Shown: one piece after another, positions 9,549 through 62,458 of the stretch
Position numbering within the stretch: the first letter of the stretch is position 1
Layout: the number at the start of each line of letters is the position of its first letter
The notes under the pieces: model-generated
Told to the model about the DNA's origin: nothing
Database searches by the model: none
The model's input: the letters and a program-made list of their open reading frames with translations, nothing else
Position numbers and translations under genes: made by a program
NCBI GenBank assembly: GCA_026004735.1
Contig: BPJS01000001.1
Span: forward strand, 1,302,001-1,366,000
From: Isosphaeraceae bacterium
GTDB lineage: Bacteria; Planctomycetota; Planctomycetia; Isosphaerales; Isosphaeraceae
DNA length: 64,000 nt
Direction: 5' to 3'

Positions 9549-9553
9549 TCGCC

Positions 9554-10492
9554 ATGACTGCCTCCCTTCGACACCGCCAGACGGCTGGTCTGACAATCGC
9601 TGGACCGATTCGACGCATGAGCCTCCTCGGGGCCGGATTGGCAATTCTCCTGGCTGCGACCGAGCCGCTCCTGGCCCAGGAACCGGCTCCCGACGCCGAT
9701 CTGGAGCGTCTCCTCGACCAGATCGATCCCCGGCCCGACTCCGACCTGGCAGACCAGCCATCCTCGAAAACCGGCGCTTCACCCAAGCCCGCTCAGCGGC
9801 CAACTGTTCCCGACGAAGCTCTCGACAGCCTGCTCGAGAAGCTCGGCCAGACCCGCGACCAACCTGATACACTCGACCCCACCGGTCCCTTTGTACCGGG
9901 TCAAACCCCACCTGATCCGGATGCCCGCGAGGGCGCTGGTCGGCAGCCTCCGGATGTCGGTCCGGACCCGCTCGATCCGTCCCGTCGAGCCTTGGATGAG
10001 CATCTCGAAGAGCTGACTGGGCGGATTCGTCGGAAACGCGCGCCCCAGGACCCTCAAACCGGTCCGCTGAGCCAAACGATCCGTAAGATCCGCGAGGTCG
10101 AAAAACGGCTCGGCGAAAACGAAACCGGCGAATCGGTTCGCCAGCGCCAGCGGGAAATCGTCAAGGACTTCGATCAACTGATCCAGCAGGCCCGTCAGGC
10201 CTCGCGTCGCTCGCGGAACCAGACCACCCAGGCCGGCGATCCTGGTTCCCAGCCGGGGCCGAACACCGGCAACACCGGGCTGGGCACCCCAGCCCAGCGC
10301 CCCAAGACGCCCACGGCCCGCGAGGTGATCGCCGCGGCCAAGGACGAATGGGGCCACCTGCCCCCCGAACTCCGCGCCGAAATGGAAAACGTCTTCAACG
10401 AGGGCGCGTTGCCCGGCCGTCGAGAATTGATCGAACGTTACTACCTGTCGATCAACCGCAAGGCCATCGAACGTCGCGGAGGCAGCCGATGA
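9554..10492 (+). CDS. exported protein of unknown function in VWA operon
   Basis: 312 aa from ATG 9554, which has GAGGAG eight bases upstream; a GTG at 9545 overlapping the previous stop is the alternative. A hydrophobic stretch ending LLAQEP near residues 25-41 looks like a signal peptide with a long basic leader. The rest is charged, Pro/Gln/Arg-rich and low in hydrophobics, with a coiled-coil-like section around residues 170-220. I do not recognise a named domain. The gene sits between DUF4175 and a prenyltransferase-repeat protein and overlaps the latter by 4 bp, so it is probably made with them and may be a partner of the coiled-coil protein. Confidence 0.65.
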   Translation: MTASLRHRQTAGLTIAGPIRRMSLLGAGLAILLAATEPLLAQEPAPDADLERLLDQIDPRPDSDLADQPSSKTGASPKPAQRPTVPDEALDSLLEKLGQTRDQPDTLDPTGPFVPGQTPPDPDAREGAGRQPPDVGPDPLDPSRRALDEHLEELTGRIRRKRAPQDPQTGPLSQTIRKIREVEKRLGENETGESVRQRQREIVKDFDQLIQQARQASRRSRNQTTQAGDPGSQPGPNTGNTGLGTPAQRPKTPTAREVIAAAKDEWGHLPPELRAEMENVFNEGALPGRRELIERYYLSINRKAIERRGGSR

Positions 10493-11616
10493 CCGCCGCT
10501 CGCCCTCCGGCTACCCCGGGAGGCTTATTCGTACCACTGCCAGCGCGGATCGGACGTTATCTGGTCTGCTGCGTCGCCCTTTGGTGTTCGGCGGTGACCC
10601 CAGCGAAGGCCCAGGAGCCGGATCCGGGCGGATTTGTCGAGGGGCGCTCGGGTGAAGTCCCTGAGGGTAGCTCGGAACTGGTCACTCCGGCCACCGAGGC
10701 GGCCATCGAACGCGGCCTGAAATGGCTGGCCGCTCAACAAGCCGCCGACGGCTCGTTTGGCTCGGGTCCCTATCGGGGCAACGTCGCCGTCACCAGTCTC
10801 TGTGCCTTGGCGTTCATGGCCAATGGCTCGACCCCGAGCCGAGGCCCCTACGGCCTCGAGGTCGAGCGCGCACTCCAGTATGTCCTCGACAACACTAGCC
10901 CATCGGGCTTCGTCTGCGTGGCCAACGCGGCGACGCACGGCCCGATGTATTCTCACGGCTTCGGCACACTTTTCCTCGCCGAGGCCTACGGCATGACAGC
11001 GCGCCCGGAAATCCGCGAGAAGCTCGAAAAGGCGGTCCGCCTGATCATCGATACCCAAAACAAGGAGGGCGGCTGGCGCTATCAGCCTCGCCCCGACGAC
11101 GCCGATCTCTCGGTGACCATCTGCCAGATCAACGCTCTACGCGCCGCGCGCAACGCCGGTCTGTTCGTTCCCAAGGAAACGGTCGAGGCGTGCATCAACT
11201 ATGTCAAAAAGGCCCAAAATCCCGACGGCGGCTTTAAGTATATGCTCTCAGGAGGCGGGTCGGCCTTTCCTCGCTCGGCCGCTGGCATCGTCGCGCTCCA
11301 GAGCGCCGGTCTCTATGAAGGCGAGGAGATCGATCGCGGTTTCGCCTACCTCGCTCAATTCATGCCGGACGCACGCTTCGGTCCACGCTTCACCCACTAT
11401 TATTATGGCCACTATTACGCGGCTCAGGCGTTCTGGATTCGCGGCGGGGCCGACTGGAACCGGTGGTATTCCGCGATCCGCGACGAACTGATCGGCAAAG
11501 CCCGTCAGTCGGACCAGGGCTTCTGGACCGACTCGATCTGCAACGAGTACGGTACCGCAATGGCCCTCATCATTCTTCAAATGCCCAACAACTTCCTGCC
11601 GATCTTTCAGCGCTGA
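10489..11616 (+). CDS. exported prenyltransferase/squalene-oxidase repeat protein
   Basis: 375 aa from the ATG at 10489, which overlaps the preceding stop (ATGA). A signal peptide is visible in the first about 45 residues (hydrophobic CCVALWCSAV, then AKAQ). The mature part carries alpha/alpha-toroid repeats with the QxxDGSFG / QNxxGGW / QNPDGGFKY signature of the prenyltransferase and squalene cyclase repeat family. The catalytic DDTA/DxDD motifs of true cyclases are not seen, so this is the large secreted repeat class common in planctomycetes rather than a hopanoid cyclase. It may bind a ligand or polysaccharide in the envelope; that is inference. Confidence 0.8.
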   Translation: MTAARPPATPGGLFVPLPARIGRYLVCCVALWCSAVTPAKAQEPDPGGFVEGRSGEVPEGSSELVTPATEAAIERGLKWLAAQQAADGSFGSGPYRGNVAVTSLCALAFMANGSTPSRGPYGLEVERALQYVLDNTSPSGFVCVANAATHGPMYSHGFGTLFLAEAYGMTARPEIREKLEKAVRLIIDTQNKEGGWRYQPRPDDADLSVTICQINALRAARNAGLFVPKETVEACINYVKKAQNPDGGFKYMLSGGGSAFPRSAAGIVALQSAGLYEGEEIDRGFAYLAQFMPDARFGPRFTHYYYGHYYAAQAFWIRGGADWNRWYSAIRDELIGKARQSDQGFWTDSICNEYGTAMALIILQMPNNFLPIFQR

Positions 11617-11657
11617 GGGTACTGCGTCCCTGACGATCCTTGCGTCTCGATCCTTCT

Positions 11658-12884
11658 ATGTTTCTCACCGCTCTGCTGGTCCTGACGCTGGTCCAAGCGC
11701 CGACTCCAGGACGAGTCGACCCGGACTTCGAGGCCATCTTGCTCGATGGATCGGTCGTCCGAGGCCGGCTGACTCAGCTCCGCCTCGAACCCGGCGGCTC
11801 CGGTTCGCTGACCCTGGCCCGTGATTCCGAGGTGGCGATTCCCTGGAACCGCTTGCTCCGTCTGGAACGCCTCGGCCCGCTCGCTCCATCGTCGTTGGTC
11901 GAGGAGACCCTGCTGTTTCCAAACGGAGACCGGTTACTCGCCACGATCCGCCGTGGCGACGCCGACTCAATCGAGGCAATCCCCGGCCTCGCGCCCGACG
12001 TCCCGGTGACGATCCCGACGAGCCGGTTGCTGGGACTGATGCTCTCTCGGCCGTCGACCGATCGTGAGCGTCGAGCGATCGAGTCCGCCCTCGCCGCCCC
12101 GAACCGCGACGGCGAGTCAATCTGGCTGACAAACGGTGATCAGAGGGCAGGCAGCCTGACGCGCCTGGAGCGCGATCGCCTTGAGGTCGAGGTCGAGGGC
12201 CGGGAGACGGGCTTTGACCGAGGCACCGTCGCTGCGATCGGCTTCGACCCCGCCCTGCTTGATCCGGAGCCGCCCCCGATGCCCTTCCTGGAGATCCATC
12301 TGGCCGATGGCTCACGCCTGGGCTTGATCGAAGCCAGCCTCGAGGCGGGCCAGGTTCGCGTTCGGACCCGCGCCGGACTGGAGCTTCGCCTTCCCTCGGC
12401 CAGTCTCTTTGAGGCGTATCCTCGCGGCGGTTCGGTCGTTTATCTCGACGAACGCGAGCCGGCCGCGCTGGACTTCATTCCGTATCTCGACCGGCATCCC
12501 GGCCTGCTCGGGATCAACACGACCTGGGATGGCTTTCCGCTGAGCGTCCGGGGCCGGCGCTACCGGCACGGACTGGGGATGCTGCCTCGGACGCTGGTCG
12601 TTTACCGTATCGAGCCCGGCGATCGCCGCTTCCAGGCTCTGCTGGCCCTCGACGACCGTGCCGGCGACCAGGCGAGTGTGGCCTTCCGCGTGCTTCTGGA
12701 TCGCCGAGAGATCTATGCGTCCCCTCGCCTGACCCGGCTCGACGATCCGGTGCCGATCGACCTCGATCTGACCGGCGGTCGACTCCTGGTGCTGATCGCC
12801 GAGTTCGGCGACCGCGGCGATGTCCAAGACTACGCCGACTGGCTCGAGGCCCGCCTGATCCGCCAGGCGCCCCAAGTTCCATGA
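11658..12884 (+). CDS. exported NPCBM-like carbohydrate-binding protein
   Basis: 408 aa from ATG 11658, giving a short signal peptide (MFLTALLVLTLVQAPTPG). An upstream TTG at 11640 is possible but unneeded. The N-terminal two thirds contain repeated small beta units that mention a stored value and switch (LLDGSVVRGRLTQLRL, LTNGDQRAGSLTRLE, LADGSRLGLIEASL), about 80-100 residues apart, resembling SH3-like or DUF-type barrels. The last about 140 residues match the NPCBM/NEW2 jelly-roll: GMLPRTLVVYRI, FQALLALDD, VLLDRREIYAS. NPCBM modules bind sugars next to glycosidases. It ends in a 4-bp overlap with the next gene, so it belongs to the same operon. Confidence 0.72.
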   Translation: MFLTALLVLTLVQAPTPGRVDPDFEAILLDGSVVRGRLTQLRLEPGGSGSLTLARDSEVAIPWNRLLRLERLGPLAPSSLVEETLLFPNGDRLLATIRRGDADSIEAIPGLAPDVPVTIPTSRLLGLMLSRPSTDRERRAIESALAAPNRDGESIWLTNGDQRAGSLTRLERDRLEVEVEGRETGFDRGTVAAIGFDPALLDPEPPPMPFLEIHLADGSRLGLIEASLEAGQVRVRTRAGLELRLPSASLFEAYPRGGSVVYLDEREPAALDFIPYLDRHPGLLGINTTWDGFPLSVRGRRYRHGLGMLPRTLVVYRIEPGDRRFQALLALDDRAGDQASVAFRVLLDRREIYASPRLTRLDDPVPIDLDLTGGRLLVLIAEFGDRGDVQDYADWLEARLIRQAPQVP

Positions 12885-50580: not shown

Positions 50581-51102
50581 ATGTCCGGGATTCAAGCCAG
50601 TGAGACGGATCGCGTCTTCATGGCGCGGGCGCTGGAACTGGCCCGGGTGGCCGCGGACCTGGGGGAAGTGCCGGTTGGCGCGATCGTTGTTCGTTCGGGT
50701 CGCGTGATCGCCGAAGGTTACAATCTTCGAGAGACGCTCGAAGACCCGACGGCTCACGCGGAGCGCCTGGCGTTGACGCTCGCGGGTCGCTCTTTGAACT
50801 CCTGGCGGCTCGATGGGTGTACCCTGTATGTCACCCTTGAGCCTTGCCCGATGTGCGCGGGTGCGATCCTCCAGGCGCGGGTGCCGCGTGTGGTCTACGG
50901 GGCGCGGGATCCGAAGGCGGGAGCCTGTGAGTCGCTTTATCGTCTCCTCGACGATCCTCGCCTCAATCATCGGGCCGAGTGCCTGGGAGGCGTACTCGCT
51001 GATCCGTGTGGAGCGATCCTGAGCGATTTCTTCCGGGTGCGTCGGCCAAATCGTCACCCAGCGGAACGCACGTGGACAACGGAGGGGTGCCTGAGTGGTT
51101 GA
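50581..51102 (+). CDS. tadA: tRNA-specific adenosine deaminase TadA
   Basis: 173 aa from ATG 50581; the frame is open upstream but the promoter candidate lies inside that part. The deaminase zinc site is H59-A-E61 (THAE-like) and PC89PMC92, with the usual lead-in VPVGAIVV and [18 protein letters not shown]. TadA converts A34 to inosine in tRNA-Arg(ACG). The last 22 bases of the gene, coding for the EGCLSG end, lie inside the tRNA-Ser gene. The natural family end is close to RRPN..., so the tail is probably dispensable. Confidence 0.95.
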
Positions 51103-51168
51103 AAGGGCCGGTCTCGAAAACCGGTGTACCGCCTAGCGGTACCGTGGGTTCGAATCCCACCTCCTCCG
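51081..51168 (+). tRNA. tRNA-Ser(CGA)
   Basis: 88 nt with a class II fold. Acceptor GGAGGGG pairs with CTCCTCC (one G-T), D-arm CTGAGTGGTTGAAAG, anticodon stem CCGGT/ACCGG around loop CTCGAAA (anticodon CGA at 51115-51117), a long variable arm (GTACCGCCTAGCGGTAC) and T-arm GTGGGTTCGAATCCCAC. CCA is not encoded. Reads UCG codons. It overlaps the end of tadA by 22 bp and lies 69 bp before the FkbM gene start. Confidence 0.97.
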
Positions 51169-51237
51169 CTCGCTTCTGCAGATCCGGCTGGCTTCCACAA
51201 GGACGCAACGGCGACTTGGTTTGCACGGGGCGGCGAA

Positions 51238-52101
51238 ATGGCGGCGCGTGGATGCAGTGCGATCCCGTGGGAGCGTAGACTCGTCGGAACCTGGCTGGGC
51301 CGGTTAGTGATCCATGTCCGCGACCAAGCGCAGCTAGTCGGTGCCGTTTTGAAACGTCCGTGGGTTGCCGAAACGCTGATCAACGACTCGCTTGCCGGGC
51401 GGATTTCCGCGCGGTTGTGTCGGGAGGGCATGACGTTTCTCGACGTCGGAGCCCACATCGGATCGGTGATCGATGCAGTGAAACGCAGTTGCCCCCGGAG
51501 CCGAGTGGTCGCCTTCGAGGCGATCCCCGAGAAGGTGGCACATCTACACAAGAGATTTCCCGATGTGGATTGTCACGCTTGCGCCCTCGGAGAGCTCGAT
51601 GGGGAGGTGTCGTTTTTTGTGAATCCCGTGGCCTCGGGGTATAGCTCGTTGGGGGGTCCGCATGGCCCCGATGCCGCCGCGTCCATCGAGATTCGGGTGC
51701 CGATGCGCCGGCTTGATGGGTTTGGCAATCTGGGAAAAGTGGACGTCATCAAGATTGATGTCGAGGGGGCGGAACTCGGTGTACTCCGGGGCGGAGAGCA
51801 GGTGATCCAAACTCACCGGCCGGTGATTGTCTTCGAAAGTGGCCCCAGAACTCTCGAGGGACTGGGGTATACGAAGGAAGCGATGTGGACCTGGCTGACC
51901 GAGCGTTCCTACGCGGTGCTGGTCCCAAATCGGCTCGCCAACGAGGACTCCGGGCTGAGCCTCGACGGCTTTTCGGAGGCACACCGATTTCCCCGTCGGA
52001 CCACGAACTACTTCGCGGTTCCGCAGGAACGGCTCGACGACGTGCGGCAGAGAGCCCGACAGATCCTCGGTTTGAAGCGGGTCGATCGAGCCGGGGTCTG
52101 A
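51238..52101 (+). CDS. FkbM-family methyltransferase
   Basis: 287 aa from ATG 51238; the open frame to 51124 lies inside the tRNA. SAM-binding motifs: FLDVGAHIGSV near residue 65 (motif I), VVAFEAIPEK near 88, CALGELDGEVSFF near 115 and DVIKIDVEGAELGVLRGG near 170, which is the FkbM signature. FkbM enzymes methylate hydroxyls of sugars, polyketides or glycans. The single gene stands without a glycan cluster around it, so the acceptor is unknown. Confidence 0.88.
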   Translation: MAARGCSAIPWERRLVGTWLGRLVIHVRDQAQLVGAVLKRPWVAETLINDSLAGRISARLCREGMTFLDVGAHIGSVIDAVKRSCPRSRVVAFEAIPEKVAHLHKRFPDVDCHACALGELDGEVSFFVNPVASGYSSLGGPHGPDAAASIEIRVPMRRLDGFGNLGKVDVIKIDVEGAELGVLRGGEQVIQTHRPVIVFESGPRTLEGLGYTKEAMWTWLTERSYAVLVPNRLANEDSGLSLDGFSEAHRFPRRTTNYFAVPQERLDDVRQRARQILGLKRVDRAGV

Positions 52102-52943
52102 CCCCCGACGTCGCTGCTCGCGGGTCCGGATTGCATGCCGGGCTTCGGCAACGAACGGCAGGGTTGGTTCCGGGAGTCCGGGGACCTCGATGCCCGGCCG
52201 TGACGACCGAATCGGCGCAGCAAGTGGACCATCACCCTCAAGCCGGGTCGGGAATCGCTGATCGCTCGACCCGAAGACCTGGAATCGGTAGAACCGGCAG
52301 GGCCGAATTCGAGACCAGACGTATGTTGTGGCCCGACGTTCCCGCCCGTGACCTGCACGAATATTAGTGGGCCGCGAAGGTGAACTCAGGAACGGCCTGG
52401 CGAGGTCATGGTGGTCGCGGGGCGATGGACTGAGCGGGGACCAGTGCTTTTCGGGTTGGGTCGAGCTGGCAGTGGACCCGGCAGGCTGCCGATCAGCAAA
52501 CCAAGACACCGAGTGTCCGCGTTGATGCTTCTCTGCCGGTAACGCAACGTTTGCGGGCGGCCTGCGGAGAAAACGGAATGTCGGGAAAGGTCGCGGGCAA
52601 CCAGGCCCGGTCATCGTGCGTGCCGACGCTTCGCAGAACGCGATCGGGAACTCGGCGTGTCGGGCGGGTGCGAGGTCAGGCCGGCAACGCCCCGGCCCGG
52701 AGCCAATCGAACCGTCACGCCTAGCCGGCAAGCTGATGAGTTCAGACTGTTGATCCATTGTTGATCGCGATCATAGCGAACGAGCCTTTCCTCCCTGCGT
52801 GGGCTGAAGAAGGAATCCAGGATCTCGACTCTGAGTCGACGACCGGGACTGGCATCGCAAGCGGCCGATTCCGGCGATGGTCCGCCAACTCGCCGCTGAT
52901 CGCGCTCATGAGGGCCAGGCGATAGCGGCGAGACCTGTGATCC

Positions 52944-52962
52944 TAGGAGAGTCGTTGTCCTA
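52944..52962. promoter_or_regulatory. operator-like palindrome 1
   Basis: taggagagtcgttgtccta: inverted TAGGA/TCCTA arms with a symmetric centre. It differs from the second copy at two positions in the left half and is followed by TCATAAAA. It lies 157 bp ahead of the WYL start. Confidence 0.65.
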
Positions 52963-52996
52963 CCCTGTCTCATAAAACACGTGACGTACGTAGGGA

Positions 52997-53015
52997 TAGG
53001 ACAATCGTTGTCCTA
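52997..53015. promoter_or_regulatory. operator-like palindrome 2
   Basis: taggacaatcgttgtccta: a perfect 8-bp inverted repeat TAGGACAA/TTGTCCTA around TCG. It lies 53 bp (about five helical turns) from the first copy and is followed by TCATTAAAA, 86 bp ahead of the WYL start. Confidence 0.7.
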
Positions 53016-53100
53016 CGGGGTTCATTAAAATCGCGTTGTTTCGAGGAAGCGGTTCCTGGTCCGAATCGTGGCGTTTGGCAGCGTGTGATGAGCGGAGGGC

Positions 53101-54084
53101 ATGCGGTACGCATCACGGCCACCACTTGCGCGGATGATGACGATCGACCAGGCGGTGCGTGCGGGGGAGTGGCCGAACGCAACGCGGCTGGCCGCGCGGT
53201 TGGAGGTTGATGTTCGGACGATCCGCCGAGACATCTCGTACATGAGGGACCAGTTGGGGGCGCCGCTGGTCTATAGTGCCCGGAAGGGGGGATACGAATA
53301 CACGCAGCCCAGTTACCGGCTTCCGTTTTTTCAGGTCACCGAGGGCGAGTTGCTGGCGTTGTTGCTGGCCCAGCGTGTGTTGGGACAGTTTCGCGGAACG
53401 CCGTTCGAGGCCGAGCTGGCTCGAATTTTTGATCGCCTGACTCATTTGCTTTCGGATACCGTAAGCATCGCGCTGGATGAGATGGCTGACTGTGTGGCCG
53501 TGCTACCGCCTGTGGTGACGCCGCTTAAGCCCGAGGTCTTTGCGACGCTGGCCGAAGCTTTGGTGGAACGTCGATGCGTACGCGTGACGTACCATACGCT
53601 CGATCGCGACACCGAAACGACGCGGACGTGGCGGCCATATCATCTGGTGCTCCGCGGAGATGATTGGTATGTGCTCGCGCACGACAGCCTGCGCGAGGGG
53701 GTGCGGATCTTCGCGCTTCAACGGATCCGCGCGGTGCAACTGTTGGAGGAACGGTTTGACCGGCCTAAGGACTTCCGGGTTGATGAATACATGGGAATCG
53801 CTTTTCGGGCGATTCCGGGGGACGGCCTGACGCGCCACGAGGTCGTCCTGCGATTCCGCCCGCCCTCGGCTCAACGCATCGCGGAAAAAATCTGGCACCC
53901 GAGCCAAATTCTGGAACGCGAGGGCGACCAAGTCGTGCTCCGGCTTCAGGTGGGGGACTTGCGCGAAATCAAGCGTTGGGTGATGTTCTGGGGCTCGGAC
54001 TGCGAAGTGCTCGGACCGGAAGAACTCCGCGCCAGCCTCAGGCTGGAAGTTGAGTCGCTCAGGAAGTCATTGTCGCCACCCTGA
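53101..54084 (+). CDS. HTH-WYL domain transcriptional regulator
   Basis: 327 aa; ATG 53101 is the first start after an in-frame stop at 53086. Residues about 10-60 are a winged HTH (AGEWPNATRLAARLEVDVRTIRRDISYMRDQLGAPL). A WYL domain (about 145-220) has RCVRVTYHTLD and RPYHLVLRGDDWYVLAHDSLREGVRIFALQRI, then a WCX-type C-terminus ending WVMFWGSDCEVLGPEELRASL. WYL proteins sense ligands, possibly nucleotides or single-stranded nucleic acid, and BrxR/CapW-type members repress phage-defence operons. Two palindromes upstream are likely its operators. The helicase gene follows 202 bp later on the same strand. Confidence 0.9.
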   Translation: MRYASRPPLARMMTIDQAVRAGEWPNATRLAARLEVDVRTIRRDISYMRDQLGAPLVYSARKGGYEYTQPSYRLPFFQVTEGELLALLLAQRVLGQFRGTPFEAELARIFDRLTHLLSDTVSIALDEMADCVAVLPPVVTPLKPEVFATLAEALVERRCVRVTYHTLDRDTETTRTWRPYHLVLRGDDWYVLAHDSLREGVRIFALQRIRAVQLLEERFDRPKDFRVDEYMGIAFRAIPGDGLTRHEVVLRFRPPSAQRIAEKIWHPSQILEREGDQVVLRLQVGDLREIKRWVMFWGSDCEVLGPEELRASLRLEVESLRKSLSPP

Positions 54085-54286
54085 CGAGTTCGCAGCCGGG
54101 ACCATTGTCGCACGGACACCTAGGGCGGCCCGGTGGATCGGGCTGGCCGACAAGGGAGCAACGACGGCCACTCCTTGAAGCTTGTATATTGAGCGCGGTC
54201 TGATCAAGACCCGCTGGCCACGCGCCCACGCGCGGCGTGAATTGGAGTCAACGTGTGATCGCATTGCCACCGGGGAGCGAGCGCAG

Positions 54287-57200
54287 ATGCCGACCGACGT
54301 CGCCGAGCAACTCAAGCGGGCCAGGGAGCGCCTGCTCGATTTGACCAACCGTAATCGTCTCATCAACACGCCGCTAGAACGAAGCCGTTCAAGGCGTCTA
54401 GATATCGTGGACGAACTCAGCCGCGAGGTTTTTCGCATCCTGGTTTGCGAACGCCAGGAAATGAGCTTTTTGCCCTCTCTGAGGACGCTCGAACAGACCG
54501 GAGTGAACTGCGTGACCGACCCTGGGCAGACTTCAGGCGATGGTTTGCCTCACCTGGCCCAACCCGATGAAGGGGATGAACCGGAAGCCGAGATCTCGGA
54601 ACGACACAGCGATCGGTACCTTCAGACTTCGTTGGATGACGAAGCGCTGCAAGACCGACTTCTAAAGCTTCACAACGAAGCACGGACACGGATCGAGGAT
54701 CAGGGGTTCAACAGCCTATTCTTGGCGATGGGTTTTTTGAAATGGTTCGAGTCTCCAAACTCGGACCAGGCGCGCTACGCTCCGTTGCTGCTGCTTCCGG
54801 TCGAGCTGCATCGGCGGAGTGCCAATGCCCGCTTCCGCCTCAAGCTGTTGGAGGAAGAAATCACCACAAATCTCTCGCTTCAGGCCAGGCTCCGGAACGA
54901 TTTCCGGCTTAGGTTGCCGGATGTGCCGGATCTGGAGGAGCTAAATCCGGACGACTACTTCACCCAGGTCGAGCAGATGATCGCGGACCAACCCCGCTGG
55001 GTGGTTCAGCGCGATCGGATGACCTTGTGGTTTTTCTCGTTCGAGGAATTCGTCATCTACCGCGACCTAGGTCCAGAGATCTGGCCGGAGGGGAAGGGGC
55101 CCAGTGACCATCCGCTCTTGAAACAGCTCCTAGGCGAGTCGGGCATCTTTGATCCACCGTTGATCGGCGAAGACGAACCCTTGGACGATCGGATCGACCC
55201 CCGGACGTCGTGCCATGTAGTCGACTGCGACAGCTCTCAGGCGGCCGCCATCGAAGAAGTCCGCGCTGGACGCACCCTCGTGATCCAGGGACCGCCCGGA
55301 ACGGGTAAATCACAGACGATTGTCAACATGATCGCCGCGGCGGTCCGTGATGGTAAGACCGTCTTGTTCGTCGCCGAGAAAATGGCAGCGCTCGAAGTGG
55401 TCAAATCGAGGCTGACATCACTTGGGATGGGAGAGATCTGCCTGGAACTCCATAGCCATAAGGCGAACCGGCGAGCCGTCCTCGAGGATTTGCGGAGAAC
55501 GCTCGAGCTCGGACGACCCGTAGCGAAGAACATGAAGCAAATGGTTGGCGAACTTGTGCGGACACGAGATCAGCTCAACGAATACGTCCGGCAGTTGCAT
55601 GACCCGATCGAACCGTTAGGTCGAACGCCCTATCAAATCCTCGGGACCCTCTGCCGATTGAAGAGCCGGGGAGTCAGCCCGTTCGAGTGCCAAATTCCGG
55701 ACATCGCCCAATGGTCCGAGAGCACTCTAAGCGAGAAACAGGCGCTCCTGCGGGACCTGGCGGAACACCTGACCCAGATCGGGCGGCCGGCTGAACATGT
55801 CTGGTACGGAGTGCGGCGAACGGCGCCCCTGTTCCCAGCGGAGCTGGACACGTTGCGAAAGCGGTTGGATCAGGTATACCACGGCATCGGCCGGATTCTC
55901 GATCGCGCAGAGCGTTTGTCGCTGTTGCTCAAATCCGAATGGAGACCGGCTGAGGAGTCGTTTCAGTCGGTCGAGCGCTTGGCGAAATTTGGCTTACGAG
56001 TTCGAACCAGTCCGGAGATGGACCAACGCGCCTTGGCCGATGCGGTCTGGGACAGGAATCGGGACCAGATCGAGCGAATCATCGAGCGGGGTCGCACACT
56101 GGCTGAGTACCGTCGCGAGCTGGAGGGCGTCGTCACTGCGGTCGCGTGGCAGACCGATGTCGGGCAGATCAGGGCCGACCTGGCGGCCACAGGCCGGTCC
56201 CTGTTTCGCTGGCTCAGCCGACGTTGGAAAGGCGCAGTCCGAAACCTGCGCCAGATCGTCGTGGGTCGCTGTCCCAACCGGCTCGACGAACAGTTATCGC
56301 TGTTGGATCGGCTCCTGTTGGCTCGGTCGTGCCTTGAGGAACTGGAGTCGGGCGGATCGCTGGACGCGCTTGGGCGATCGGCTTTCGGCAGCGTCTGGCG
56401 AGGGACGGATTCGGATTGGGACCAATTGACCCTCATCCTTGAATGGGAAAGCACGTTTCGCGAGCTAGGGGTATCCCGAACAGTTCTGCAGGATGTTCCG
56501 TCCTGGACGGAGGCGGAGGGTGCCGAGGAAGCCTTCGCTGGGCTCAAGAGCGTCTTCAAGCCGACCTGGGAGGCGCTCAACGAACTGATCAAGGAACTCG
56601 AAGTCGACGTTCGCCGGGTTTTTGGGCTGTCGGACCTGCTGGAATGTCCGCTCAAAGACCTTCACGCAAAACTGGCGAGCTGGAGAGCAGCTAGCCACCA
56701 GCTCGAGCGGTGGATTGTCTTTCAGCGTAAGCTCGGCGATCTGTCCAAGGCTGGCTTGAACATGCTCAGGCCACAGATCGAAAGGGGAGAGCTGAATCTC
56801 AGTAGCCTTGATCGGTTGGAGTTAATGGTTTGCGAAGCCGCTCTCCGAAAGGTGCTCCGGGAACGAGATCGAATCGCCCGCTTCGACGGAATCAGTCACC
56901 AACGGCTGGTCGAGGAGTTCTGCCGGCTGGACGAAAACCGGATTAAGCTCGCCACGACGGAGGTGGCCACTGCACATTTCGGTCGTCTTCCATCCGGTAG
57001 AGAGGGCGGCGAGGTGGGAATCATACAGGGTGAGATTCGCAAGAAACGCCGCCATCTTCCGCTTCGCAAGCTGCTGAGCGAGGCCGGCCATGCGATGCAA
57101 GCGATCAAGCCGGTTTTCATGATGAGCCCGCTCTCGGTCGCGCAGTTTCTTCAACCCCGTGTCATCGAATTCGACCTACTGGTGATCGACGAGGCCAGCC

Positions 57201-59215
57201 AAGTGGACCCGGTCAGGGCGTTTGGAGCCATCTGCCGATGCCGCCAGGCGGTGATCGTGGGGGACAACCGCCAGTTGCCTCCCACCGCGTTTTTCAAACG
57301 TTACGCGGAGAGTGATGAGGAACTCGATGACTCGAGCGAAGCGACGGCGGCGACCGACGTCGAAAGCATCCTGGACTTGTGCGTCGCGCGCAATGTTCCC
57401 CAGCGGATGCTTCGCTGGCATTACCGCAGCCGTCATCACTCGCTGATCGCCGTCTCGAATCGGGAGTTTTACGACAACCGACTCTTTGTTGTTCCTAGCT
57501 CGGATCGGGGTGGTGCGGCTCGTGGCCTTCAGTTCCGGTATATCGCCAACGGTGTGTTCGACCGAGGCCGCACGCGAACCAACCGCATTGAAGCCCAGGC
57601 CGTCGCCCAGGCCATCCTCGAACATGCCCGCCAATATCCCGACCGTTCGCTAGGCGTCGGGACGTTTTCCGTCAGTCAGCGAGACCTCATTGTCGACGAG
57701 CTGGAGTTGCTTCGTCGCAACCATCCCGAGACCGAGGAGTTTTTCTCCGAATCTCGAGACGAGCCGTTTTTCGTCAAAAACTTGGAAAACATTCAAGGTG
57801 ATGAACGAGACGTCATCTTCATCTCGGTCGGATACGGGCCGGACGAGGATGGCGTCATTCGCATCAACTTCGGTCCACTCACCAAACAAGGTGGTGAGCG
57901 CAGGCTCAATGTGCTGATCTCGCGTGCTCGGCAGCAGTGCGTCGTCTTCAGTTCGCTCCGCGCGGACGATATCAACCTTCGGCAGACCAGATCGCGCGGT
58001 GTCGAGGCCTTCAAGGCATTCTTGCAGTACGCAGAAACCGGGCGAATGGATCTTAGCCGGCCCAGCGGACGCGAATGGGATTCGGAATTCGAAGCCGAGG
58101 TGGCCGACGCCCTCCGAAACGCCGGCTGGGATGTCGATCCGCAGGTAGGGATCGCTGGCTTCTTCATCGACGTGGCTGTCGTCGACCCTGACGTTCCCAC
58201 GCGGTATCTGCTGGGCATCGAATGCGACGGAGCTTCCTACCACTCTGCACGTTGGGCACGCGACCGCGACCGACTCCGGCAAGCCGTGCTCGAAGCTCAC
58301 GGCTGGACGATCCATCGAATCTGGAGCACGGACTGGTTTTATAGTCGCGACCAGCAGTTAGGCAAGTTGCTCAAACGGCTCGAAGAGCTTCGTGAGCGGA
58401 GCCGGTCTGAAGGCGACGCGGCGAGGGGCAATGGCTCATCCGGACGGGGAGTTGCAAGCCCAGCCCGACTCTCAGATTCCCAAGGCTGCCCGGCAGCGGA
58501 CCCACATTGTGAAACCAGCCCTGTGATGGTCATCGATGCCGCGGCCAGCCCCACGGGGATCTGCGATGCCGAGGCCGGACCCGTAACGACCGATGGTACC
58601 GAGGTGGGAATCCCCCGAGAGAGGCCGGTTCATGATCCAGACAACGGGCAGCTTTCCGTCCCGTACATCGAGGCTGAGTTCAGAGATCCCCGCATGGCGG
58701 AAGAGATCCATGAACTCTGGCCTTCTGAGCTGGCCGAGATTGTCTCTCGGATTGTCGAGATCGAAGGGCCAATTCACGAGGACGAGATTGCTCGTCGCGT
58801 CACGTCACTTTGGGGACTCCAGCGAACCGGAAACCGAATCACGCAAGCCGTCAAAGCCGCTCTGAAATACGCAGTCCGCGCTGGACGCGTTGACGAATCG
58901 ACCGGGTTTTATTGGTGCCGCGGTCAGCGCGCATTTCCGGTTCGCAACCGCGAAACCGTCGCGAGCGCCACGCTCCGCAAACCCAACATGCTGCCGCCAC
59001 AGGAAATCGACTCAGCCATCCTTCATTTCGTCGCCTCGCACATCTCGGCCAGGTCTGACGAGACGACTCGGTTCGTAGCCCGGTCGTTCGGATTCCAAAA
59101 CGTCGGCCCGAATCTCAGAGAGCGAATCGAGTCCCGCATCGCCTTCCTAATCTCTGAGGGAAAACTGGTCGAGGATCGGGATGTGTTGCGAGCCGGCAAG
59201 CGTAACGATCCATAG
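54287..59215 (+). CDS. DUF4011-superfamily 1 helicase-Vsr-like nuclease-DUF3320 protein
   Basis: 1642 aa from ATG 54287, with GGGGAG about nine bases upstream; the frame is open to TTG 54182. In order: DUF4011 (about 9-60; RERLLDLTNRNRLINTPLE), SF1/UPF1-like helicase split by a long insertion (Walker A GPPGTGKSQ about 335, VIDEASQVDP about 966, VGDNRQLPP about 990, LNVLISRARQQ about 1206), a Vsr/MTES_1575-like nuclease (FEAEV about 1267, GFFIDVAV, GIECDGASYH about 1310) and DUF3320 near the C-terminus (about 1478-1545). The acidic nuclease residues are intact. This matches the single-gene phage-defence type called Hhe in defence catalogues (name from memory). Base composition looks less GC-rich than its neighbours. 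Confidence 0.88.
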   Translation: MPTDVAEQLKRARERLLDLTNRNRLINTPLERSRSRRLDIVDELSREVFRILVCERQEMSFLPSLRTLEQTGVNCVTDPGQTSGDGLPHLAQPDEGDEPEAEISERHSDRYLQTSLDDEALQDRLLKLHNEARTRIEDQGFNSLFLAMGFLKWFESPNSDQARYAPLLLLPVELHRRSANARFRLKLLEEEITTNLSLQARLRNDFRLRLPDVPDLEELNPDDYFTQVEQMIADQPRWVVQRDRMTLWFFSFEEFVIYRDLGPEIWPEGKGPSDHPLLKQLLGESGIFDPPLIGEDEPLDDRIDPRTSCHVVDCDSSQAAAIEEVRAGRTLVIQGPPGTGKSQTIVNMIAAAVRDGKTVLFVAEKMAALEVVKSRLTSLGMGEICLELHSHKANRRAVLEDLRRTLELGRPVAKNMKQMVGELVRTRDQLNEYVRQLHDPIEPLGRTPYQILGTLCRLKSRGVSPFECQIPDIAQWSESTLSEKQALLRDLAEHLTQIGRPAEHVWYGVRRTAPLFPAELDTLRKRLDQVYHGIGRILDRAERLSLLLKSEWRPAEESFQSVERLAKFGLRVRTSPEMDQRALADAVWDRNRDQIERIIERGRTLAEYRRELEGVVTAVAWQTDVGQIRADLAATGRSLFRWLSRRWKGAVRNLRQIVVGRCPNRLDEQLSLLDRLLLARSCLEELESGGSLDALGRSAFGSVWRGTDSDWDQLTLILEWESTFRELGVSRTVLQDVPSWTEAEGAEEAFAGLKSVFKPTWEALNELIKELEVDVRRVFGLSDLLECPLKDLHAKLASWRAASHQLERWIVFQRKLGDLSKAGLNMLRPQIERGELNLSSLDRLELMVCEAALRKVLRERDRIARFDGISHQRLVEEFCRLDENRIKLATTEVATAHFGRLPSGREGGEVGIIQGEIRKKRRHLPLRKLLSEAGHAMQAIKPVFMMSPLSVAQFLQPRVIEFDLLVIDEASQVDPVRAFGAICRCRQAVIVGDNRQLPPTAFFKRYAESDEELDDSSEATAATDVESILDLCVARNVPQRMLRWHYRSRHHSLIAVSNREFYDNRLFVVPSSDRGGAARGLQFRYIANGVFDRGRTRTNRIEAQAVAQAILEHARQYPDRSLGVGTFSVSQRDLIVDELELLRRNHPETEEFFSESRDEPFFVKNLENIQGDERDVIFISVGYGPDEDGVIRINFGPLTKQGGERRLNVLISRARQQCVVFSSLRADDINLRQTRSRGVEAFKAFLQYAETGRMDLSRPSGREWDSEFEAEVADALRNAGWDVDPQVGIAGFFIDVAVVDPDVPTRYLLGIECDGASYHSARWARDRDRLRQAVLEAHGWTIHRIWSTDWFYSRDQQLGKLLKRLEELRERSRSEGDAARGNGSSGRGVASPARLSDSQGCPAADPHCETSPVMVIDAAASPTGICDAEAGPVTTDGTEVGIPRERPVHDPDNGQLSVPYIEAEFRDPRMAEEIHELWPSELAEIVSRIVEIEGPIHEDEIARRVTSLWGLQRTGNRITQAVKAALKYAVRAGRVDESTGFYWCRGQRAFPVRNRETVASATLRKPNMLPPQEIDSAILHFVASHISARSDETTRFVARSFGFQNVGPNLRERIESRIAFLISEGKLVEDRDVLRAGKRNDP

Positions 59216-59639
59216 GGTCGTGCGTCTCGGCTGGCGGTCGGCTCGATGCGCTGACGAATCTGTACGTGCCGAGTCGGAGGCTTGGGGTGAGCCCCCAGGG
59301 ATGGACAGTGACGGGGCCCCTTTCGAAACAATCACCCCACGCCCGGATGAAAGACCCGGCTGGACGCTCGCCCGCTTGGCGAGGCGAATTCGCCTCCTGG
59401 GGCGAGGGGGTAGCCGCCGAACGGGTCGCATCCTCCGAACGGCGACCCCGGGCAGGTTCCCGCGCCGCGAACGGCCAGTACGCATGCGGACCCGCACTGA
59501 GCGCGATTCCAGGCTGGATCTGTAAGTTCCAGCACGTGTATCGCGCGGCTCAGCCTCGGCCGGGCTCGACAGAAACGTTGACGATCGAGTCCCGGTTCCC
59601 CGTCAGCAAACGATGCGCAGTCCGGTGCGAAGAGGAATA
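59216..59639. other. 424-bp convergent intergenic region
   Basis: Between the helicase gene and the NtrC-type regulator. It holds a perfect 16-bp palindrome at 59381-59396 and no supported gene or RNA. Confidence 0.5.
59381..59396. repeat. 16-bp perfect palindrome
   Basis: gaggcgaattcgcctc is its own reverse complement. It could be a terminator stem without loop or a protein site. No U tract is adjacent and no second copy was seen nearby. Confidence 0.4.
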
Positions 59640-61052
59640 TCACAGAATGATATTATGTTCGTCCAGTTTTCGATAAAGCGACGATAATCCCAGGCCCAAG
59701 CGCCGCGCGGCTTCGCGTTTGTCGCCGCCGCATCGGGTCAGGATTCGCCGCAGATGGTGGCGCTCGGCCTGGGCGAGGTAGGAGCGCAGGTCGTCGGGCT
59801 CGCCGGCACCGGTGGCTTCAACCAGCTCCGACGGAAAGTTCTCGGCGGTGAGGGTCGGGCCTTCGCCCAGAATGATGGCACGCTGTACGGCGTTCTCCAG
59901 CTCGCGGACGTTGCCGCGCCAGGGGGCCGAGAGGATCAACCGCATGGCTTCGCGATCGACTCCGCGGATGCGCTTACCGAGGGTTCGCGCGTGTCGTTCG
60001 AGCAGAGCTTCGACCAACACGGGAATATCTTCCGGGCGTTCGCGCAAGGGTGGGATCGTAAGGAAGAGCACGTTCAACCGATAGAATAGGTCGGCGCGAA
60101 ACCGGCCGGCTGCGACTTCGGCTCCGAGATTTTTGTTGCTGGCCGCGATGATGCGTGCCCGCACGGCCACGCTCTGGGTCGCTCGGACCGGTAGGACTTC
60201 CTTATTTTCGATGACCCGCAAAAGCTTCGCCTGCGCGGCCAGGGGAAGTTCCCCGACCTCGTCGAGAAAGACAGTTCCCTGACCGGCTGCGAGAAACAGG
60301 CCGACCGTCTCTGGCTCCAGACCATGAGCATCCGACCGCACTTGCCCGAAGAGCTGGATCTCCAGATCCTCCTCAGCTAAAGCCGCGCAGTTGACAGCCA
60401 GAAACGGCTCGTCCGGCGCGGGGCCTAGGGAATGAAGCGCCCGCGCGACAAGTTCCTTGCCGGTACCACTCTCGCCTGTGATGAGCACGGTGCTGGGCGA
60501 CGGACCAACCTTGCGGATCCAAGCCCGAATCTCCTCGATCTGAGGGCTGACGCCCAGCAGACTTTCAGGTCCGACTTCTCGCTGCAAGGCTCGCCGCAAC
60601 GCCTGGTTTTGCCGGACCAGGTGGCGGTACTGCGCCATCCGCTCAAGCTTTGCCAGCAACTCGTCGAACAGCACGGGTTTGATCAGGTAATCGTGTGCTC
60701 CGCGTCGGAACGCGGCGACCGCACTCTCGACCGTCGCGAACGCGGTGATCATCAAGACCATCGTTTCAGGGCGGTCCCGGACCACCCGATCCAAAAAGTC
60801 CAACCCATCGATGCCGGGCAGTTGGATGTCGCAAAGGACAACGTCCGGAGCGAACGCCGCCAGTCGCTCCAACGCGGTGGCCCCGTCTAGGGCTGTAGCG
60901 ACCTCGTATCCTTCACCCATCAGAAATTCACCGATGGTCTCGGCGATCACCGGCTCGTCGTCCACGATCAGAACGCGGCTGTGTCGGCGTTCGTCCTGCG
61001 GGTCGAGGGATCTCCCGACCGCCGCGCGCTCGCGATGATCCGGTGCGTTCAT
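59640..61052 (-). CDS. NtrC-family AAA+ response regulator lacking GAFTGA
   Basis: 470 aa. Receiver domain with D31/D32, phospho-acceptor D75 (LCDIQLPG) and K125 in LIKP; AAA+ domain with Walker A GESGTGKE (193-200), Walker B GTVFLDEVGEL (259-269) and NVRELENAVQRAI; Fis-type HTH at the end (GDKREAARRLGLGLSSLYRKL). The loop where GAFTGA contacts sigma54 reads RSDAHG (239-244), so sigma54 activation is doubtful. It overlaps the kinase gene by 4 bp and is surely its partner. Regulators like this may work with sigma70 or through DNA binding alone. Confidence 0.9.
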   Translation of the reverse strand: MNAPDHRERAAVGRSLDPQDERRHSRVLIVDDEPVIAETIGEFLMGEGYEVATALDGATALERLAAFAPDVVLCDIQLPGIDGLDFLDRVVRDRPETMVLMITAFATVESAVAAFRRGAHDYLIKPVLFDELLAKLERMAQYRHLVRQNQALRRALQREVGPESLLGVSPQIEEIRAWIRKVGPSPSTVLITGESGTGKELVARALHSLGPAPDEPFLAVNCAALAEEDLEIQLFGQVRSDAHGLEPETVGLFLAAGQGTVFLDEVGELPLAAQAKLLRVIENKEVLPVRATQSVAVRARIIAASNKNLGAEVAAGRFRADLFYRLNVLFLTIPPLRERPEDIPVLVEALLERHARTLGKRIRGVDREAMRLILSAPWRGNVRELENAVQRAIILGEGPTLTAENFPSELVEATGAGEPDDLRSYLAQAERHHLRRILTRCGGDKREAARRLGLGLSSLYRKLDEHNIIL

Positions 61053-62407
61053 CGAACCGGCTCCGACTCGATGATAGACGCACGGGCCGGTGCCGGAATC
61101 GCCTGCTCAATCGTCCGCAGCTCGATCCAAAACGTCGCACCCGATCCCGCTGACGATTCGACCCCGATACGCCCCCCCATCTCCTCCACCAGGGTACGAC
61201 TGACATACAAGCCTAAACCGGTGCCGTTCGGTTTGGTTGTGAAGTGAGGCTGAAACAGGCGGGCTTGATCAGGCTCGCTCAGTCCCCGGCCATCGTCGCG
61301 AACCAGCAGCCGAACCCAACCCGACCGCTCCTGCTCGGTCAGCAGTTCGATTCTTCCGCCCTTGGTCGTCGCATCGATCGCGTTCAGAACCAGATTGAGC
61401 ACGACTTGCGTCAGGTGGTCGCGAACCCCGTGGACGTGCAGCCGCTGTGCACCGAGCCGGTTCTCGATCCGCCGGTCCTTGGTGGGGTGGTAGTACTTGG
61501 CGATGTCCAGCGCGTCCTGAACGGCCTCATCGAGCGGGAATGGGCCGATTGCCGGCGAGGCTGGTCGGGAGAACGCGACCAGCTCGCCGATCGTCCGCCG
61601 AATCCGGTCCAACTGACTTTCGGCCAGCGCCAGCTTGGTCTCGGTGTACGGGTCGGGTCGCCGCCGCCTCAGCATCTGAACCAGCGAACTGAGCGCGGCC
61701 AGCGGGTTGCCGACCTCATGAGCGATTCCAGCGGACAGGAGACCGAAGGCCGCCATCTTCTCCTGCTGAATCAGACGCGCCTGGGAGGCGCGCAAGGCTT
61801 CAACCTGTTGGGCGATGCGCCGCTCCAACTCCGCCTGATGCCGCTCAAGCGCGGTGTTCGCGGCTTCGAGGCGCTGGCCTGTGGCCTTGAGCGTGTCCGC
61901 CAGAGCGGCCGCCGCCCAGGTCGCCCAGGCCACAACCACGAACGTCAAGGGGAGTGTGTGGAGATCACCGGTCATGCCTTCCGATTGTAGGATGACGGCC
62001 AGAATGAGCAGGGCGATCAGTTGTGTCGTCAGGGTGAGCGCAGCAGAAACCCGGTTGTAGCGGATCGCTACGCAGAGCGACGACAACAGGAAATACCAGC
62101 GAAACGGACTCTCCAGGCCCGTGTCGTAGTAACACAGCAAGGCAATAAACGTGGTCTCCATGACCGCGACGAAGAGCGGCCACGACCCAAGAAAGATCTG
62201 CCCCCGCCGCTGATAGATGGTGTCCACAAGAGCATAAACCGCTCCCAAGGCGAGGATGGCTCGCACGGCCTGAGCGTCGCGCAACCCGTCGCGGCTCTGA
62301 ACCAGAACATACCCCATCACAATCCCAAACCAGCGGATCTTGACGACGATCGACTCAGCGGCGCACTGCCAGTCGCCACGATCCGACGAGACCGGCGCGG
62401 AAGCCAT
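61049..62407 (-). CDS. membrane sensor histidine kinase
   Basis: 452 aa from ATG 62407; a GTG at 62458 adds 17 residues. Four to five hydrophobic segments fall between residues 20 and 175 (AILALGAVYALVDTIY, WPLFVAVMETTFIALLCYY, ALTLTTQLIALLILAVIL, LTFVVVAWATWAAAALADTL), with no clear periplasmic sensor, so it may sense within the membrane. A coiled linker leads to the H-box GIAHEVGNPLAALSS, N-box VVLNLVLNAIDAT, G1 RDDGRGL and G2 NGTGLGL. All catalytic boxes are intact. Paired with the GAFTGA-less regulator by ATGA overlap. Confidence 0.92.
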   Translation of the reverse strand: MASAPVSSDRGDWQCAAESIVVKIRWFGIVMGYVLVQSRDGLRDAQAVRAILALGAVYALVDTIYQRRGQIFLGSWPLFVAVMETTFIALLCYYDTGLESPFRWYFLLSSLCVAIRYNRVSAALTLTTQLIALLILAVILQSEGMTGDLHTLPLTFVVVAWATWAAAALADTLKATGQRLEAANTALERHQAELERRIAQQVEALRASQARLIQQEKMAAFGLLSAGIAHEVGNPLAALSSLVQMLRRRRPDPYTETKLALAESQLDRIRRTIGELVAFSRPASPAIGPFPLDEAVQDALDIAKYYHPTKDRRIENRLGAQRLHVHGVRDHLTQVVLNLVLNAIDATTKGGRIELLTEQERSGWVRLLVRDDGRGLSEPDQARLFQPHFTTKPNGTGLGLYVSRTLVEEMGGRIGVESSAGSGATFWIELRTIEQAIPAPARASIIESEPVR

Positions 62408-62458
62408 CTCCAGCCCAGGGCAAGGGACACATTCACGCGAATCGAACGGGCCAACCAC

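What the first reader, a model, noticed from the sequence alone, without database searches (positions are those of the whole stretch)
52944..59215. WYL-regulated single-protein defence module: operators, regulator and DUF4011-helicase-nuclease effector
A 327-aa HTH-WYL regulator is followed on the same strand by a 1642-aa protein whose order DUF4011, SF1 helicase, Vsr-like nuclease, DUF3320 matches the Hhe-type phage-defence protein. WYL regulators (BrxR, CapW) control BREX and CBASS. A regulator, spaced operators and this effector together would be a regulated version of a system usually described as one gene. Seen: motifs, order and spacing. Inference: repression and antiviral role.
Basis: partly seen in the sequence, partly recalled or inferred. 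Interest (0 to 1): 0.88.

Follow-up and report, generated by a model that had tools for sequence, protein, structure and literature searches.

The report
WYL-controlled helicase-nuclease phage-defence cassette
A planctomycete carries a large predicted anti-phage helicase-nuclease gene behind its own DNA-binding switch; the switch belongs to a group otherwise found at the head of CRISPR operons and looks built to turn the gene on when single-stranded DNA appears, not simply to hold it off.

Summary
Two matched palindromes (52944-52962, 52997-53015), a 327-aa HTH-WYL-WCX regulator (53101-54084) and an intact 1642-aa DUF4011-SF1 helicase-nuclease-DUF3320 protein (54287-59215) lie in order on one strand. 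Two corrections. (1) The effector is PADLOC PDC-S37 / NCBIfam ProA, not Hhe (1081 bits, cut-off 2000). (2) By sequence profile, predicted fold and operator, the regulator is closer to the ssDNA-triggered activators DriD and PafBC than to the repressors BrxR and CapW. The operator TAGGAC-N7-GTCCTA has DriD's half-site geometry (GAC-N7-GTC), centred at -32 of a predicted promoter with a good -10 and no -35. The same operator-spacer--10 block stands upstream of the regulator's close relatives (six loci, five genomes), and the full motif occurs once in the 4.8-Mb genome. The WYL-effector pairing is not conserved: about 123 effector homologues have no adjacent WYL gene. The closest WYL relatives mostly head type I CRISPR-Cas operons. 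Best reading: an autoregulated, ssDNA-responsive WYL activator cassette of CRISPR-operon type placed before a usually solitary defence gene. Activation, ligand and antiviral function are inferred, not shown.

The parts
52944..52962 (+). Operator W1, TAGGAGAGTCGTTGTCCTA (imperfect), centre at -32 of its -10
52973..52978 (+). Predicted -10 hexamer of P1, TAAAAC (predicted start 52985)
   Evidence: same spacing as W2 and as relatives
52997..53015 (+). Operator W2, TAGGACAA-TCG-TTGTCCTA (perfect palindrome), GGAC-N7-GTCC core
53026..53031 (+). Predicted -10 hexamer of P2, TAAAAT (predicted start 53038); no consensus -35
53101..54084 (+). WYL regulator, 327 aa, PafBC/DriD-like (HTH-WYL-WCX)
53179..53295 (+). 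HTH_11 DNA-binding domain (residues 27-65)
53533..53739 (+). WYL domain (residues 145-213) holding R175, Y190, R198, R202, R208, equivalents of PafB ssDNA-binding residues
53833..54054 (+). WCX domain (residues 245-318)
54287..59215 (+). PDC-S37/ProA-type DUF4011-helicase-nuclease-DUF3320 protein, 1642 aa
54329..54892 (+). DUF4011 domain
55289..55312 (+). Walker A GPPGTGKS (residues 335-342)
57188..57202 (+). Helicase motif II DEASQ (residues 968-972)
58088..58381 (+). MTES_1575 / Vsr-like nuclease domain, D1295, E1312-x-D1314
58721..58843 (+). DUF3320 (winged-helix region in the model)

Best explanation
An autoregulated, inducible defence cassette. Shown: a conserved operator-spacer--10 block upstream of a PafBC/DriD-like WYL regulator, followed by an intact PDC-S37/ProA helicase-nuclease. 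Inferred: single-stranded DNA (phage replication intermediates or broken DNA) binds the WYL pockets. The dimer then binds TAGGAC-N7-GTCCTA, centred at -32 over the missing -35, and recruits RNA polymerase to the two tandem -10 elements, as DriD does. Transcription reads through the regulator into the effector, giving positive autoregulation and a burst of helicase-nuclease that degrades the invading or damaged DNA. The regulator is of the type that heads type I CRISPR-Cas operons and has been placed in front of a usually stand-alone defence gene.
For: Family: profile search of solved structures gives PafBC 1e-27 and DriD 2e-15 against CapW 7e-7 and BrxR 3e-5; Foldseek ranks DriD first (TMq 0.60-0.63), then PafBC, with CapW/BrxR at 0.31-0.38. 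Operator: the same half-site geometry as DriD's ATACGAC-N7-GTCGTAT, which lies over the -35 at a fixed distance from the -10 in promoters with poor -35s (PMC12340889); PafBC promoters are tTGTCRgtg-8-TannnT (PMC5656591) and SiwR also activates from -26 (PMC10693628). The block is conserved upstream of relatives (leave-one-genome-out, 0 of 2000 randomisations each). GGAC-N7-GTCC occurs in 5 of 20 more distant WYL loci against 0.09 expected, and the gap of 7 stands out among 0-15. No sigma70 promoter and no terminator between the genes. Five of six PafB residues needed for ssDNA binding are conserved. Relatives' neighbours are defence genes.
Against: No expression, binding or phage data. Sll7009, a CRISPR-associated WYL protein, is a negative regulator (PMC4012209), and Acinetobacter BrxR binds at -51 to -27, so operator position alone does not prove activation (PMC9122589). 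The -10 hexamers are inferred. The operator block is not found in two CRISPR-operon members of the same clade (L167, L169). The 202-nt gap between regulator and effector leaves co-transcription unproven. The effector's defence role rests on profile names only.
Confidence: 0.6

Rival explanations
1. WYL repressor of the BrxR/CapW kind: the dimer sits on the two operators and blocks transcription until a ligand (ssDNA) releases it, de-repressing regulator and effector.
For: WYL repressors of defence operons exist (BrxR, CapW: PMC9122601, PMC9122588); Acinetobacter BrxR covers the -35; Sll7009 represses a CRISPR locus; tandem operators suit cooperative repression; CapW also binds ssDNA (PDB title 9c5g).
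Against: No consensus -35 in any of the seven sites (0-2 of 6 matches at spacers 16-18), so there is little to repress; operator-to--10 spacing is fixed in relatives; CapW sites cover the -10 and these do not; fold and sequence rank BrxR/CapW well below DriD/PafBC.
Confidence: 0.25
2. Chance neighbours: the WYL regulator controls only itself (or is a leftover of a lost CRISPR operon) and the PDC-S37 gene is unregulated by it.
For: No PDC-S37 homologue among about 123 loci has an adjacent WYL gene, and none of 115 with readable upstream sequence has the operator; the closest WYL relatives head CRISPR operons; 202-nt gap; the own genome's CRISPR locus lies 1.5 Mb away with no WYL gene.
Against: Same strand, no intervening gene, terminator or other promoter; in a relative (L170) the same kind of operator-WYL unit precedes another large defence-like effector; a useless regulator with two intact operators is unlikely to be kept.
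Confidence: 0.13
3. The effector is a housekeeping DNA-repair helicase-nuclease under DNA-damage control rather than a phage-defence protein (compatible with either sign of regulation).
For: Regulators of this fold (PafBC, DriD) run DNA-damage responses; the nuclease resembles Vsr, a repair family, and the DUF3320 region resembles the repair enzyme AlkX/YcaQ.
Against: Patchy distribution (18 of 45 genomes of the family; about half of a phylum sample), divergent sequences, plasmid copies in several phyla, and PADLOC/NCBIfam defence models.
Confidence: 0.15

Closest known systems
PADLOC PDC-S37 / NCBIfam NF058533 anti-phage protein ProA (effector)
   Same: End-to-end profile match (1837.6 bits; ProA 1519.1 bits, cut-off 1500); same domains, intact catalytic residues
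   Different: Matches ProA from profile position 355, i.e. lacks about 350 N-terminal positions of that model; has a dedicated WYL gene upstream, unlike about 123 homologues examined
Hhe (NF042953 / PDLC02194)
   Same: Same superfamily and domain order DUF4011-SF1 helicase-nuclease
   Different: Scores 1081 bits against a cut-off of 2000; not Hhe
DriD (Caulobacter) WYL activator
   Same: HTH-3-helix-WYL-WCX fold (best Foldseek hit); GAC-N7-GTC operator; operator over the -35 at fixed distance from the -10; poor -35
   Different: About 18% identity; different outer bases of the operator (TAG..CTA, not ATAC..GTAT); likely single-locus regulon rather than a dispersed repair regulon
PafBC (mycobacteria)
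   Same: Best sequence-profile match; TGTC element near -26 with TANNNT -10; ssDNA-binding WYL residues conserved
   Different: Single-chain homodimer expected, not a heterodimer; symmetric palindrome; spacing 13 rather than 12
BrxR / CapW
   Same: WYL regulators in front of defence genes, palindromic operators, wHTH-WYL-WCX
   Different: Clearly lower sequence and fold similarity; CapW operators cover the -10; BrxR half-sites 5 apart over a canonical -35
CRISPR-associated WYL regulators (PADLOC PDLC01457)
   Same: Best PADLOC match of the regulator; closest homologues head type I-B and I-G operons
   Different: Here no cas gene is adjacent; the controlled gene is PDC-S37

Membership tests
PDC-S37 (PADLOC) | Full-length match to the PDLC05009 profile | tested here: met
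   residues 2-1635 to positions 2-1545 of 1550, 1837.6 bits
ProA (NF058533) | Score above the equivalog cut-off of 1500 | tested here: met
   1519.1 bits, narrowly above; N-terminal ~350 profile positions unmatched
Hhe (NF042953) | Score above the equivalog cut-off of 2000 | tested here: not met
   1080.9 bits
Anti-phage defence protein (function) | Protection against phage | not testable with these tools
   needs phage challenge
DriD/PafBC-class WYL activators | HTH-WYL-WCX architecture with closer sequence/fold to DriD/PafBC than to BrxR/CapW | tested here: met
DriD/PafBC-class WYL activators | Operator at fixed distance upstream of a -10, with no good -35 | tested here: met
   seven sites in five genomes, centre at -32, GTC ending at -26; transcription start not measured
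DriD/PafBC-class WYL activators | WYL residues that bind ssDNA (PafB R181, Y196, R204, R208, R211, R214) | tested here: met
   five of six present (R175, Y190, R198, R202, R208; R211 is A205)
DriD/PafBC-class WYL activators | Activates transcription on ssDNA binding | not testable with these tools
   needs EMSA and in vitro transcription
BrxR/CapW WYL repressors | Operator overlapping the -10, or a canonical promoter, so that binding represses | tested here: not met
   operators end 10 bp upstream of the -10 and no consensus -35 is present; repression itself not testable here
CRISPR-associated WYL regulators | Groups with WYL genes of cas operons | tested here: met
   99/97-supported clade of 7 with 4 type I CRISPR members
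CRISPR-associated WYL regulators | Adjacent cas genes or array | tested here: not met
   none in the window near 53-59 kb; the genome's only cas1 hit lies at 2.87 Mb
Conserved WYL-PDC-S37 two-gene system | WYL gene adjacent in homologous loci | tested here: not met
   0 adjacent among about 123; one non-adjacent, opposite-strand WYL in L060

The most novel reading that the evidence does not exclude
A portable, ssDNA-triggered activation cassette (operator-promoter plus WYL activator of DriD type) is shared among unrelated planctomycete defence systems: type I-B and I-G CRISPR-Cas, probably type I restriction, an LmuA-like effector and PDC-S37. It would make otherwise constitutive immunity inducible by DNA damage or phage replication, a positive-feedback counterpart to BrxR/CapW repression.
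Probability: 0.4. Interest if true: 0.75.

Novelty: new variant of a known kind. Interest (0 to 1): 0.56.

Why it matters
WYL regulators of defence are mostly discussed as repressors. An activator with DriD-like operator geometry would mean that some defence genes are switched on by ssDNA itself, linking DNA-damage signalling to immunity. It would also explain how a large, potentially self-harming helicase-nuclease is kept quiet. The prediction is sharp (operator bases, transcription starts at 53038 and 52985, key WYL arginines), so it can be tested directly.

Tried and rejected
Hhe identity: rejected on score. Conserved WYL-PDC-S37 module: rejected; BLAST and a purpose-built WYL profile found no adjacent WYL gene in 109 phylum and database loci or 14 same-family loci. 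A recurrent other regulator upstream of PDC-S37: none among 34 adjacent upstream genes. A wider regulon in the own genome: the full motif occurs only here; the looser pattern adds one weak site at 2442312, fetched (L188) but not analysed. The own CRISPR locus as an additional target: no genome-wide motif match falls there. Island boundaries: GC content shows no sharp step, and a 24-nt inverted repeat spanning 50931-59682 lies inside coding genes and is probably chance. Literature on PDC-S37 and ProA: nothing found in the held library. L176's 1626-aa ORF next to a WYL gene looks like a spurious reading frame and was not counted.

Full report
What is there. The window lies at 1,302,001-1,366,000 of a single-contig 4.82-Mb genome. 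Neighbouring loci and database relatives point to a planctomycete. On the + strand, in order, are two similar 19-bp palindromes (52944-52962 and 52997-53015, 53 bp apart), a 327-aa WYL regulator (53101-54084), and a 1642-aa protein starting at ATG 54287. Pfam gives HTH_11, WYL and WCX for the first protein, and DUF4011, AAA_11/AAA_12 helicase, MTES_1575 nuclease and DUF3320 for the second. Helicase and nuclease catalytic residues are intact and conserved. The C-terminal model (mean pLDDT 83) resembles a putative endonuclease (3hrl) and the Vsr-like homing endonuclease I-Bth0305I over the nuclease domain, and DNA- or RNA-binding winged-helix proteins over DUF3320, all with modest E-values.

Effector identity. 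PADLOC matches PDC-S37 end to end at 1837.6 bits and Hhe at 776.4. NCBIfam gives ProA 1519.1 (cut-off 1500) and Hhe 1080.9 (cut-off 2000). The protein is therefore PDC-S37/ProA, a relative of Hhe. The family is patchy but common: 152 of 294 phylum genomes have some match to the profile (including partial helicase matches), 18 of 45 in the own family, and copies on plasmids of several phyla. No paper on PDC-S37 or ProA was found in the held library.

Is the pairing conserved? No. TBLASTN and a WYL profile built from 40 regulators found no WYL gene beside any of 29 planctomycete loci (1.5-kb flanks), 80 database loci (up to 8-kb flanks) or 14 same-family loci. The one exception is a distant WYL gene about 5 kb away on the other strand in L060. 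No operator occurs within 500 bp upstream of 115 homologues with readable sequence. Among 34 genes immediately upstream of homologues there is no recurrent regulator. In G327 both a subfamily WYL gene and a PDC-S37 homologue exist, on different contigs.

Where the regulator comes from. Its nearest relatives in the same family (38-51% identity) were read with their surroundings. L132, L133 and the partial L136 head type I CRISPR-Cas operons, and L134 follows a type I restriction hsdR gene. Phylum-wide, L167, L169, L174 and L175 also head type I-B or I-G operons. L170 precedes a 1480-aa protein with an LmuA-like N-terminus. In a maximum-likelihood tree the window protein pairs with the CRISPR regulator L113 (99/98), inside a clade of seven (99/97) of which four head CRISPR operons. 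The genome's own type I CRISPR-Cas locus (cas1 at 2.87 Mb, 64 repeats) has no WYL gene; the window's is the only WYL gene found in the genome.

Which kind of WYL regulator? With a five-member profile, PafBC scores 1e-27 and DriD 2e-15 against CapW 7e-7 and BrxR 3e-5. The AlphaFold model (mean pLDDT 88) matches DriD first (E 4e-17, TMq 0.60-0.63), then PafBC, then CapW and BrxR (TMq 0.31-0.38). Of six PafB residues shown to be needed for ssDNA binding (PMC11804915), five are present: R175, Y190, R198, R202 and R208; the sixth, R211, is A205.

The operator. W1, W2 and the sites upstream of L132, L133, L134, L135 and L137 align without gaps from the palindrome to a TANNAT-like hexamer: consensus T(A/G)GGAC-N7-GTCCTACCC-N8-TANNAT. 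Leaving out each genome in turn, the held-out site scored above all 2000 first-order randomisations of its own upstream region. In 20 more distant WYL loci GGAC-N7-GTCC occurs in 5, against 0.09 expected; gap 7 gives 5 loci, gap 6 gives 1, and all other gaps from 0 to 15 give none. In the own genome the full motif occurs once, here. Taking the hexamer as the -10, both palindromes centre at -32 and the GTC ends at -26. No site has a usable -35, and the region holds no sigma70 consensus promoter. DriD's consensus is ATACGAC-N7-GTCGTAT, centred on the -35 at a constant distance from the -10 in promoters with poor -35s (PMC12340889). PafBC promoters read tTGTCRgtg-8-TannnT (PMC5656591), and SiwR also needs a -26 element (PMC10693628). 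CapW sites instead overlap the -10 (PMC9122588). The caution is Acinetobacter BrxR, which binds -51 to -27 over a canonical promoter (PMC9122589), and Sll7009, a negative regulator of a CRISPR locus (PMC4012209). The inference of activation is therefore good but not proven.

Mechanism proposed. ssDNA loads the WYL pockets; the dimer binds W1 and W2, takes the place of the missing -35 contact and recruits RNA polymerase; transcription proceeds through the regulator (positive feedback) into the helicase-nuclease, which then attacks the DNA that produced the signal. Shown: gene content, order, intact motifs, conserved operator block, family placement. Inferred: ssDNA as ligand, activation, read-through across 202 nt (no terminator or promoter predicted there), antiviral role.

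Verdict. The effector name, the sign of regulation and the idea of a conserved two-gene system need correcting. It is a new variant of a known kind: a CRISPR-type WYL activator unit in front of a known defence-candidate gene.

Noticed in passing
L170 (G439:C76:19000-35300), WYL then ORF 7628-12067 (-): The same WYL subfamily with a TAGGAC-N7-GTCC site in front of a 1480-aa protein with an LmuA-like N-terminus (PADLOC 5e-13) and no Pfam match: possibly an undescribed WYL-controlled single-protein effector.
   Followed up: partly
G000:C1 about 2,864,000-2,878,000 (L187): Type I CRISPR-Cas locus with 64 repeats (GTTTCAATCCACGCCCCCGTGAAGGGGGCGAC), no WYL gene nearby and no operator match.
   Followed up: partly
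51081-51169 and 51124-52101 (+): tRNA-Ser(CGA) overlapped by the predicted start of an FkbM methyltransferase ORF; the true start is probably further downstream. The tRNA sits about 1.8 kb upstream of the cassette.
   Followed up: no
50931-50954 and 59659-59682: A 24-nt, 79% inverted repeat pair brackets the cassette and its neighbours; both arms lie in coding genes, so probably chance.
   Followed up: no
59640-62458 (-): NtrC-type response regulator and histidine kinase gene pair directly downstream, convergent with the effector.
   Followed up: no
L188 (G000:C1:2442312-2442330): One weak operator-like site (TAGGACTATCGATTTCCTA, 3 mismatches) elsewhere in the genome.
   Followed up: no
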